Positions 19,874 through 23,753 of a stretch of DNA of 64,000 nucleotides are shown here, in pieces (the stretch's first letter is position 1; every line of letters begins with the position of its first letter). The DNA is from Leptolyngbyaceae cyanobacterium JSC-12 (GTDB lineage Bacteria; Cyanobacteriota; Cyanobacteriia; Leptolyngbyales; Leptolyngbyaceae), in assembly GCA_000309945.1 (NCBI GenBank), contig CM001633.1:1262723-1326722 (forward strand), written 5' to 3'. The position numbers were made by a program, and so were the translations under genes. Below the pieces are notes generated by a model. The model worked only from the letters and a program-made list of their open reading frames with translations, was not told where the DNA came from and ran no database searches.

Positions 19874-20397
19874 CGAAGCTGCAAGCAAGACAGCCATACC
19901 TGCAACAAGGCGTGAATAAATTTAGCAACACCGACCAATGAATCAATAGAGAGGCTGAGACCCAGAAAAGAACATCTCTTCAGGTGAAAGCCCCTGCCCA
20001 ACGCCACAAAATTGACCACAAACCTTCATTATTTTCAGGAACTTGTCATCATGTCTACACAAACAATTGCCTCCATGTCTGTTCTTTTCGTTTCTGCAAG
20101 TTTACTGACAAGCTTACCCGCCCAAGCTTCGGATACTAATTTTTGCAATCGGGTCTATCAGCAAGTGGCGAATGCTTCATCCAGCCAAAGTTCTAAAGGT
20201 CACAACATGCGTGGAGGCATAGGCTATGGACCCATTTCGATTGGTGGTGGCTCTCAATACCATCGCTCAAACGCCGCCAGTCAAGCTGATATCAACACCT
20301 ATTATGCGATGAACTGCGACAACTACATTCGGGCGATCTATGGTGTGAAGCTGGCAGATATTCTAGCCAGAGAACGTATGAATGCCCACAATAATCG

Positions 20398-21248
20398 GGT
20401 AATGTTCTAGACATGGGGCTAAGGATCAGGGTAAATAGAATTACCAAATCAGTTAGGGTAGTTCAAAACGACTACGATGGTACTCGAACCTGTACACTGT
20501 CCCACTTGCAACAGCACTAACATCGTCAAACATGGCAAGACGGCTGAAGGCAAACAACGATATAAATGTCGGAATTCCGAATGCACTCGCCATAGCTTTG
20601 TTCTGGAGTATTCCTACCGAGGTTACTTACCTGATGTGAAACAACAGATTTGTGAGATGGCACTCAATGGCAGCGGAATTCGCGATACTGCACGAGTACT
20701 CAGAATTAGTCCGACTACTGTCATTGAAGAATTAAAAAAAGATCGTCATCTTGAACAGATCAATCGATCATTGTTGGAACAACTGGAGCCAACAGCTGTG
20801 ACTATTGCCAAACACATCGAAGAAGCCGAAGCAGACGAGATGTGGAGCTTTGTCCGGTGTAAAAAACAGGAACGTTGGCTGTGGCATGCCATTGACCATC
20901 AGACGGGGCAGGTATTGGCGTATGTGCTGGCAGACCATCAAGACCAAGCGTTGGTCGAGTTAAAAGCATTGTTAGCACCGTTTGGGGTTCAAACCTTTTA
21001 TACCGATGGATGGGGAGCCTATGCTCGCTTGTTCGATGAAGACCAGCATGTGGTTGGTAAACAGAATACACAGAAAATTGAGCGCAAGCATTTGACGTTA
21101 CGAACCCGAATTAAGCGATTAGCTCGCAAGACGATCTGCTTCTCCAAGTCCGAACGGCTACATGACATTGTGATTGGGTTGTTCATCAATCGCTATGAAT
21201 TTGGACGGGTAGTTTGACCTTATCGATCCCCATGTCTAGCACACTACC
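20398..21248 (+). mobile_element. IS1 family insertion sequence (851 bp)
   Basis: Bounded by imperfect inverted repeats of 21 bp (19 matching): 20398-20418 begins GGTAATGTTCTAGACATGGG and 21228-21248 reads, reverse complemented, GGTAGTGTGCTAGACATGGG. The 8-bp direct repeat AATAATCG lies at 20390-20397 and 21249-21256, the duplication size typical of IS1. A single complete transposase gene fills the element. Confidence 0.93.
20477..21217 (+). CDS. IS1 family transposase (single-frame InsAB)
   Basis: 246 residues. The N-terminal zinc-finger-like part CPTCNSTNIVKHGKTAEGKQRYKCRN and a helix-turn-helix (GIRDTARVLRISPTTVIEEL) correspond to InsA; the rest is the InsB DDE domain, with DEMWSFVRCKKQERWLWHAID, FYTDGWGAYARLF and KIERKHLTLRTRIKRLARKTICFSKS. 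Both halves are in one frame, without the programmed frameshift of E. coli IS1, as is common in cyanobacterial members. Intact. Confidence 0.93.
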   Translation: MVLEPVHCPTCNSTNIVKHGKTAEGKQRYKCRNSECTRHSFVLEYSYRGYLPDVKQQICEMALNGSGIRDTARVLRISPTTVIEELKKDRHLEQINRSLLEQLEPTAVTIAKHIEEAEADEMWSFVRCKKQERWLWHAIDHQTGQVLAYVLADHQDQALVELKALLAPFGVQTFYTDGWGAYARLFDEDQHVVGKQNTQKIERKHLTLRTRIKRLARKTICFSKSERLHDIVIGLFINRYEFGRVV

Positions 21249-21865
21249 AATAATCGAACGAACTTGCAAATTGTCCAAAATACCAACGGGGCAAATGTGC
21301 AGATGAATCAAGAAGACAACAAGAGCAGGCGACTTGAAAGTAAACATAGTTTAATTGGCAATGGTCTGGGGGCACTGGCACAAATTGTCGTGGCATCTAT
21401 TAACCGTCCTCGTAATCCCGAACCTGAACCTGTTCAGCAGGTTGCAAGTAATCCTGCTCCCGTCTCTGCTGTTGAGCCTTCTATGCAGCCTGTCGCTCCA
21501 GCTTATGCACCAGCACCCTCCCAGATTGCCTATGCTCCATCGTTGCCTGCGACTTCTTTTGTCATGTTCAGTAGTAATCCAGCGATTCCAGTCTCACCCG
21601 TGATTGTGGCAAAGGTGAATGCAGCTTTATCCAGCCAGGGGCTTTTACCAGCAGCCTGTGTAGCAAGTCCAATCGTGGTTTTAAATGTTGCTAATGGGCA
21701 GTATATTGCCTGTGCCCAACCCAGTGCCACGTTTCCTCCTGGAAATTATCGATTAAATATTCCCGGTTTATAGGCATTTGTGTTCTTAATTAGTAACTAT
21801 TTTGTTCTATAAGGGGTATTCATGAGAATATCCCTATAGATAGAAACAACATTTTTGGAACACAA

Positions 21866-21992
21866 TTAGTCAATGCTATCAGTCCGCTCCAGGGTAAATC
21901 CCAAATCTGCCAAGATATCTTGAGGCGCATAGGGCAGGTCAAAGTACTTTAAACGTATAGGATTCCTGCGGGTCAAGAACTCTAGGCTGCAT
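21866..21992 (-). pseudogene. Frameshifted gene end, unknown family
   Basis: On the minus strand ATG 21992 opens MQPRVLDPQESYTF and then meets a stop. Dropping one A near 21948 continues the frame as KYFDLPYAPQDILADLGFTLERTDSID and a stop at 21866. The combined peptide (about 43 residues) looks like protein rather than chance reading, and resembles the start of small cyanobacterial proteins beginning LDPxxSYTF; the family is not established. It lies 90 bases from IS701-like copy 1, in a region with other decayed genes. Confidence 0.4.
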
Positions 21993-22083
21993 AAAATAGC
22001 TGTATCAGTTTAGGCAATGAAACTCATTACTTAAGTTCTGCCTCCATCCTAGTGCAATCAGGCTTTGGATTTTCATAAAATTA

Positions 22084-23539
22084 CACAACTTGGCAAGTTA
22101 CCGAAGTAGAAAAAACGATCGCCAATCAACTGGGGAGGAGAGCTTGTAAAATCTGTTCATTTGTATGTCCGTGAGAACATCGCGTCACAATGAATTGCAG
22201 CAAATCATCAAAGGCTTGACGAGTGAGGGTATAGAGCTTCTGTCCCACCGTTTGCTTGCCTTGAGCAAACTCAAATCGTTCAGATTGTGCGCCAGAACAG
22301 GCAGTCCGTTGCAGAATCGACTGCGCCACGCAACTAAGACGGAAGTGACGGTTGACCGCTTCCTCGTTCCGCACCTGAGCCGACTCTAGCCCGGTGTGCT
22401 GTTTGCTCACCTCATGAAAGACCTCGCAGGACCATCGATAACTCCAAGTCTGCATGACTCGCCCACTTTCCCAATGCAACGCATCGGTGAGCAGGAAGCG
22501 AGGTGGGTCTTGTAAATCTGCTTGCTCGTGGACGATGACCAATCGCTTGCGTCCAAACTTCTTGAGGCGCACGACTTTGGTAAATGCCCAAATCGGTTTC
22601 GTTTCGCCGTTGCGGCAAGTGACTTGAATCGGGCGAAAGCTCTCTGGGTGATGGATTCTGAGTTCTAAACCAATCGCATCTACCCGTTGCCATTGGTCAT
22701 TCCACAAGATGTTGCGAGAACTTTCAACTTCACTCACCCAGTGTTTTCCTGCGGACTCAATCATGGTGGTTAACTCAACAGTCAACACCCCATTGTCAAA
22801 CGCATAATCGGCGGTGGGAAATTGTCCTTCCGCTTCCACTTGGCGCACAATCTCGACGGCAATCTCGGTGCGTTTGCGATACTCCAATCGATTCTTGTGA
22901 TAATGCAACATCTCAATCAGTCGTTCTCGCACTTGGTCTAAATCGTCATAGTGGGATTTTGCCGTCACCTTCAGATACTCCCGTTCTGCCACTGAAAAAT
23001 CTGGAAACTGCACCACCACGTCAATCCCATCAATTAGGTGGCGGTTCGCAATCGTCGCCGTCACCACCGTTTGAAAGCAACTCATCCGATGTTCCACATA
23101 ATCATAGGATCGCTTCACCCCAAAGATCTGCTTGCCCCAATCGTGATGGCTGAGCGTCCAATCCAGACTGATGACTTCTCGCCCTCGCCCCTGATGCTCT
23201 TTGGCTATCACAGCACGATGATGGGACATTAACTCTGAACTCCTCCAGCCCGCCTCAAACACCGCTGCGTGCATCGCTCTTCGTCCGCCGACCTCCCCAC
23301 CTGCTACCCATTGTCCGGCAATCCCTTGCAAGGTTTTGTTCTCACTCAACAGCAATCCGGTCACATAGCGACTCACCTGCTCAAAGCCTGCGCCTCGGCA
23401 GAACAGGTCTCGATATTTCCCAAACTCTTGAGCAATCGTCGATGGCACAGCGACAAAGGGCAGCATGATACGGCTACGGCTAACGTCTCCTACATTTTCT
23501 GCTTATCTTTTTCCTTTCTGGGTAACTTGCCAAGTCGTG
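22084..23539 (-). mobile_element. IS701-like insertion sequence, copy 1 (1456 bp)
   Basis: Ends are inverted repeats of 19 bp with one mismatch: CACAACTTGGCAAGTTACC on the left and, reverse complemented, CACGACTTGGCAAGTTACC on the right. A direct repeat TAAAATTA flanks it at 22076-22083 and 23540-23547. A second copy with the same length is at 50492-51947; the only base difference I noticed is A at 22780 versus G at 51188. The family label rests on the transposase style and is provisional. Confidence 0.88.
22126..23466 (-). CDS. DDE transposase, IS701-like
   Basis: 446 residues, identical in sequence to the product of 50534-51874. The N-terminal part (FGKYRDLFCRGAGFEQVSRYVTGLLLSENKTLQGIAGQWV) is like the DDE_5/IS701 group. 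The first catalytic Asp is probably in VISLDWTLSHHDWGKQ, the second in FPTADYAFDNGVLT, and the Glu around SYRWSCEVFHEVSKQHTGLESAQVRNEEA. Intact and probably functional. Confidence 0.85.
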   Translation of the reverse strand: MLPFVAVPSTIAQEFGKYRDLFCRGAGFEQVSRYVTGLLLSENKTLQGIAGQWVAGGEVGGRRAMHAAVFEAGWRSSELMSHHRAVIAKEHQGRGREVISLDWTLSHHDWGKQIFGVKRSYDYVEHRMSCFQTVVTATIANRHLIDGIDVVVQFPDFSVAEREYLKVTAKSHYDDLDQVRERLIEMLHYHKNRLEYRKRTEIAVEIVRQVEAEGQFPTADYAFDNGVLTVELTTMIESAGKHWVSEVESSRNILWNDQWQRVDAIGLELRIHHPESFRPIQVTCRNGETKPIWAFTKVVRLKKFGRKRLVIVHEQADLQDPPRFLLTDALHWESGRVMQTWSYRWSCEVFHEVSKQHTGLESAQVRNEEAVNRHFRLSCVAQSILQRTACSGAQSERFEFAQGKQTVGQKLYTLTRQAFDDLLQFIVTRCSHGHTNEQILQALLPS

Positions 23540-23753
23540 TAAAATTACCTTCTGGCATACCCAATACTCTACAAAAAAACCTCCTGATCAGGACTACACC
23601 AGACAATGTTTTTCTATCTCTGCGATGGTTGAGTGATTTACCTGTTCGAATGGGTAGGTGCGATTGCAATAAAATGCAACAGTCTGAATACAATAGCCTG
23701 ATCAACCTATTCGGAATGATTTAAAGGATAAAATTACGACTCAAATAAAATCA

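What the first reader, a model, noticed from the sequence alone, without database searches (positions are those of the whole stretch)
20051..21773. IS1 insertion splits a secreted-protein gene; the frame is restored exactly on removal
An 851-bp IS1 element with 21-bp imperfect ends and an 8-bp target duplication AATAATCG sits in codon 114-116 of a gene with a signal peptide. Removing the IS and one repeat fuses 20051-20389 to 21249-21773 in the same frame, giving a 287-residue exported protein. The two flanking pieces would be annotated as unrelated hypotheticals. The frames on both sides are otherwise undamaged, so the insertion looks recent, and the strain is a natural knock-out of an uncharacterised secreted protein.
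Basis: seen in the sequence. Interest (0 to 1): 0.62.

Follow-up and report, generated by a model that had tools for sequence, protein, structure and literature searches.

The report
IS1 insertion breaks cyanobacterial exported-protein gene
A common jumping gene (IS1) has landed in a little-known cyanobacterial gene for a probably exported protein and cut it in two; this is ordinary genome wear, with the minor twist that the element carries a transposase gene fused into a single reading frame.

Summary
An 851-bp IS1 (20398-21248) lies between copies of AATAATCG (20390-20397, 21249-21256). Without it and one repeat, the flanks form one 287-codon frame. Codon bias lies in that frame in both halves. 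Of seven IS1 sites tested, only this one gives a long ORF across the empty site.

Homologues (Gloeocapsopsis, Elainella, others) cover only the C-terminal part, with a Cys-pair domain. Leptothermofonsia sichuanensis E412 has the same locus with a different break, a ~750-bp deletion joining the upstream DNA to the gene's 3' part. So the pieces were once contiguous, and the gene has been broken independently in two genera: decay of a dispensable gene.

Side result: this copy's transposase is one 246-codon ORF (A7 run). Five of nine near-identical copies in this genome are fused and four (A8) are split; fused copies also sit beside split ones in three relatives. Engineered fusion raises E. coli IS1 transposition about 900-fold (PMC12428005), so these may be natural deregulated variants. 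Homopolymer sequencing error is not excluded.

The parts
20051..20389 (+). 5' part of the broken gene (113 codons; predicted export signal about residues 1-27)
   Evidence: translation; coding score positive only in this frame; hydropathy
20390..20397 (+). target duplication, left copy AATAATCG (codons 114-116)
20398..21248 (+). IS1-family element, 851 bp, 19/21 terminal inverted repeat
20477..21217 (+). IS1 transposase as a single fused InsA-InsB' ORF, 246 aa
   Evidence: Pfam; NCBIfam
20734..20740 (+). A7 run at the InsA/InsB' junction; four sister copies have A8 and a split frame
21249..21256 (+). target duplication, right copy AATAATCG
21249..21773 (+). 3' part of the broken gene, holding the conserved C-terminal Cys-pair domain (joined residues about 218-283, about 21561-21758)
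21808..21845 (+). strong hairpin after the stop codon, terminator-like, also present in Leptothermofonsia E412
   Evidence: z = -5.4; alignment
19899..19937 (+). upstream DNA that in E412 is joined directly to the gene's 3' part
   Evidence: alignment score 39 against a maximum of 27 in 2000 shuffles

Best explanation
An IS1-family element transposed into codons 114-116 of a single 287-codon gene for a probably exported protein, duplicating 8 bp. The insertion truncates the protein to 119 residues and leaves the conserved C-terminal Cys-pair domain in a headless 3' fragment with no export signal. Shown: the duplication, the frame, the coding bias on both sides, and contiguity of the 5' flank and the 3' part in E412. 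Inferred: export, loss of function, recency. The gene is a sparse, dispensable member of a cyanobacterial family, broken a second, independent way (a ~750-bp deletion) in E412. The inserted copy belongs to a fused-frame subset of the genome's IS1. It should make InsAB' transposase without frameshifting and little or no InsA repressor (inferred from E. coli IS1).
For: Exact target duplication and 287-codon joined frame. Coding score positive only in the shared frame: 5' half 0.07, 3' half 0.15, other frames -0.13 to -0.51; the spanning ORF is unique among seven emptied IS1 sites and absent in 400 Markov sequences. E412 locus: window 19899-19937 and 21546-21767 homologous and 2 nt apart, followed by the same hairpin. 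Family homologues with N-terminal hydrophobic leaders and the C-terminal domain. Near-identical copies in the genome. Fused and split copies side by side.
Against: No homologue spans residue 116. The 5' half has no convincing relative (only a low-complexity match in G034). The N-terminus lacks a basic residue. No sister strain with an empty site is held.
Confidence: 0.88

Rival explanations
1. The two flanks were never one gene; the IS sits between two neighbouring ORFs that happen to be in frame.
For: No homologue spans the junction. Homologues from other genera align only with the 3' piece.
Against: The AATAATCG duplication falls inside both frames, the joined frame is open for 287 codons, coding bias is in the same frame on both sides, and the 3' piece has no leader of its own while all full homologues do.
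Confidence: 0.05
2. The gene was already non-functional before the IS arrived, so the insertion is neutral debris rather than a knock-out.
For: A second breakage in E412. The partner gene found downstream in relatives is missing from this genome. Another IS (22085-23540) and a gene fragment lie just downstream. The M50 neighbour has no match in same-genus genomes.
Against: Both halves are free of stops and frameshifts and keep coding bias.
Confidence: 0.3
3. The A7/A8 difference between IS1 copies is homopolymer sequencing error, so the element is not really fused.
For: The difference lies in a poly-A run. At least one relative (E412) was assembled from Nanopore plus Illumina reads (PMC8997340), and short-read polishing inside near-identical repeats is unreliable (own knowledge).
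Against: In G030 the fusing base is outside the run (CGACTG against CGCTG). Three E412 copies are two bases shorter than the 28 A9 copies. The five A7 copies of this genome include two that share a separate SNP.
Confidence: 0.3

Closest known systems
IS1 of Escherichia coli (IS1 family)
   Same: Zn-ribbon plus HTH plus DDE transposase, imperfect terminal repeats of about 20 bp, 8-9 bp target duplication, poly-A junction between InsA and InsB'
   Different: 851 bp rather than 768; InsA and InsB' are in one frame in this copy, where native E. coli IS1 needs a -1 ribosomal shift at A6C (PMC12428005)
Engineered fused-frame IS1 (IS1E.fs, PMC12428005)
   Same: InsAB' is the default product without frameshifting
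   Different: natural, by a changed base count at the junction; keeps an uninterrupted A run, so slippage could still give some InsA; activity not measured
Cyanobacterial exported proteins with one or two copies of a Cys-pair domain (Gloeocapsopsis crepidinum L035, Elainella saxicola L036); no Pfam or NCBIfam family
   Same: hydrophobic N-terminus, Pro-rich linker, C-terminal GLxxxxC...QYxACAxP...PxGxY domain
   Different: only the last domain copy is recognisable here; the first 160 residues are unrelated; the conserved downstream partner gene is absent

Membership tests
IS1 family | IS1-type DDE transposase with Zn-ribbon and HTH | tested here: met
   Pfam and NCBIfam NF033558 at 207 bits against a cut-off of 100
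IS1 family | imperfect terminal inverted repeats of about 20-25 bp | tested here: met
   19 of 21
IS1 family | 8-9 bp target duplication | tested here: met
   8 bp here; 8 or 9 bp at several other copies
IS1 family | two ORFs joined by frameshifting at a poly-A run (usual, not universal) | tested here: not met
   single 246-codon ORF here; split in four sister copies
IS1 family | mobility | tested here: inconclusive
   near-identical copies with target duplications and one inversion pair with exchanged flanks imply past activity; not assayed
Cys-pair exported protein family (unnamed) | C-terminal domain with the conserved Cys pair and PxGxY | tested here: met
Cys-pair exported protein family (unnamed) | two copies of the domain | tested here: not met
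   only the C-terminal copy is recognisable
Cys-pair exported protein family (unnamed) | downstream partner gene (FTFTNxLEYxxCL type) | tested here: not met
   no match in this genome; present in E412 and four other genera

The most novel reading that the evidence does not exclude
Cyanobacterial IS1 elements repeatedly give rise, within single genomes, to fused-frame copies that escape frameshift control of transposase. The insertion in this gene would be the work of such a deregulated variant, with the junction base count acting as a mutable switch between fused and split forms.
Probability: 0.3. Interest if true: 0.45.

Novelty: new member of a known kind. Interest (0 to 1): 0.2.

Why it matters
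As a gene disruption it is routine: IS elements break dispensable genes all the time. It helps annotation, because the two halves can be recorded as one pseudogene and an unnamed family of exported cyanobacterial proteins gains two broken members. The more useful by-product is a set of near-identical IS1 copies in one genome that differ in whether the transposase needs a frameshift, a natural counterpart of an E. coli experiment.

Tried and rejected
Homologues spanning the junction: searched in 58 relatives, the family and order (42 genomes), 390 genomes of the class, one other family (36), and genome contigs twice; none. The weak G034 match to the 5' half is a low-complexity Gly/Ser stretch of an unrelated 559-aa ORF. 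No match in plasmids. No Pfam or NCBIfam family for either half or for the homologues. No solved relative. A model of the Elainella homologue had pLDDT 56, so no fold search was run. The idea that fused copies are younger, judged by intact target duplications, failed: duplications are equally patchy in fused and split copies of E412 and G030. No frameshift-stimulating RNA structure stands out after the run (z = 0.2). My first reading of A8 as a canonical -1 site was wrong: A8 needs +1, and A9 (most E412 copies) is the -1 form. No Rfam hit. Literature searches found no report of naturally fused IS1 copies beside split ones, but the library is partial.

Full report
What is there. The window lies at 1,262,723-1,326,722 of a single-contig 5.53-Mb genome. 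It is a relative of Leptothermofonsia sichuanensis: genome G026, placed in the same family, has contig length 6,426,061, the published size of strain E412 (PMC8997340). At 20398-21248 there is an 851-bp IS1-family element with 19/21 matching ends and an 8-bp duplication AATAATCG. Its 246-aa product matches the IS1 transposase models in Pfam and NCBIfam. The genome holds nine full copies and two left-end fragments.

Was one gene split? The empty site reads as 287 codons and a stop. Among seven IS1 sites emptied in the same way, only this one gives a long ORF across the junction (300 codons from an upstream TTG, 287 from the ATG; the next best is 112), and 0 of 400 Markov sequences reach 287. 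Codon usage trained on 25 long ORFs of the window scores both halves positive in the shared frame and negative in the other five. The 3' half ends before a strong hairpin (z = -5.4).

Relatives. Homologues from Gloeocapsopsis, Elainella and other cyanobacteria match joined residues from about 163 to 283 only. They have a hydrophobic leader, one or two copies of a Cys-pair domain and a conserved partner gene downstream. The closest relative is a remnant in E412, 84% identical over residues 209-287. There, DNA homologous to window 19899-19937 is followed after 2 nt by DNA homologous to window 21546-21767 and then by the same hairpin. E412 has therefore lost about 750 bp including the start codon. 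That shows the 5' flank and the 3' part contiguous without an IS, and a second independent breakage. The partner gene is present in E412 but not in the window genome.

Consequence. Translation from the ATG runs 3 codons into the IS and stops at 119 residues; the 3' part has no leader. Loss of an exported protein is the likely result. Because the gene is sparse and twice broken, little fitness cost is expected (inference).

The element itself. Copies in this genome differ by a one-base step in a poly-A run at the InsA/InsB' junction: five have A7 and one fused ORF, four have A8 and a split frame, with otherwise near-complete identity. In the zero frame A7 gives 246 aa, A8 gives a 92-aa InsA and needs a +1 shift, and A9 gives 108 aa and needs -1. 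E412 has 3 A7, 6 A8 and 28 A9 matches; G033 has 1 A7 and 4 A8. In G030 one of 16 copies is fused, by an extra base outside the run. Within E412 and G030 fused and split copies are more than 99% identical, in G033 97%, so fusion probably arose separately in each lineage. Engineered fusion in E. coli raises IS1 transposition about 900-fold (PMC12428005). Activity here is untested, target duplications do not show fused copies to be younger, and homopolymer error remains possible for the poly-A cases. Two fused copies near 0.3 Mb lie inverted with exchanged flanks (AGATTGCCT/ACTATTGA), as expected of an intramolecular replicative event.

Verdict. Ordinary IS disruption of a decaying gene; interest 0.2.

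Noticed in passing
window 22085-23540: A second IS (1456 bp, 40-nt imperfect inverted ends, 8-bp duplication AAAATTAC at 22077-22084 and 23541-23548, DDE_5 transposase 22126-23466 on the minus strand) lies 300 bp downstream of the broken gene.
   Followed up: partly
window 21879-21994 (- strand): Fragment homologous (79%) to DNA that lies upstream of the gene remnant in E412 (L012 1320-1436) and may encode the start of an ORF (MPPKVLAPQESYTF...); probably a gene remnant.
   Followed up: partly
G000:C1:299556-301408 (L034): Two identical fused-frame IS1 copies in inverted orientation, about 150 bp apart, with exchanged flanking 8-9-mers: a scar of adjacent inversion by replicative transposition. 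An IS1-end-like sequence lies between them.
   Followed up: partly
L035 5732-6373, L036 5471-5983, L037 5237-5815, L012 1842-2441: A conserved exported-protein partner gene (FTFTNxLEYxxCLxxIL...DFYxTxxLxxxxYPPxGxR) lies next to the Cys-pair gene in several cyanobacteria; in Gloeocapsopsis it appears to carry a copy of the same Cys-pair domain. No known family.
   Followed up: partly
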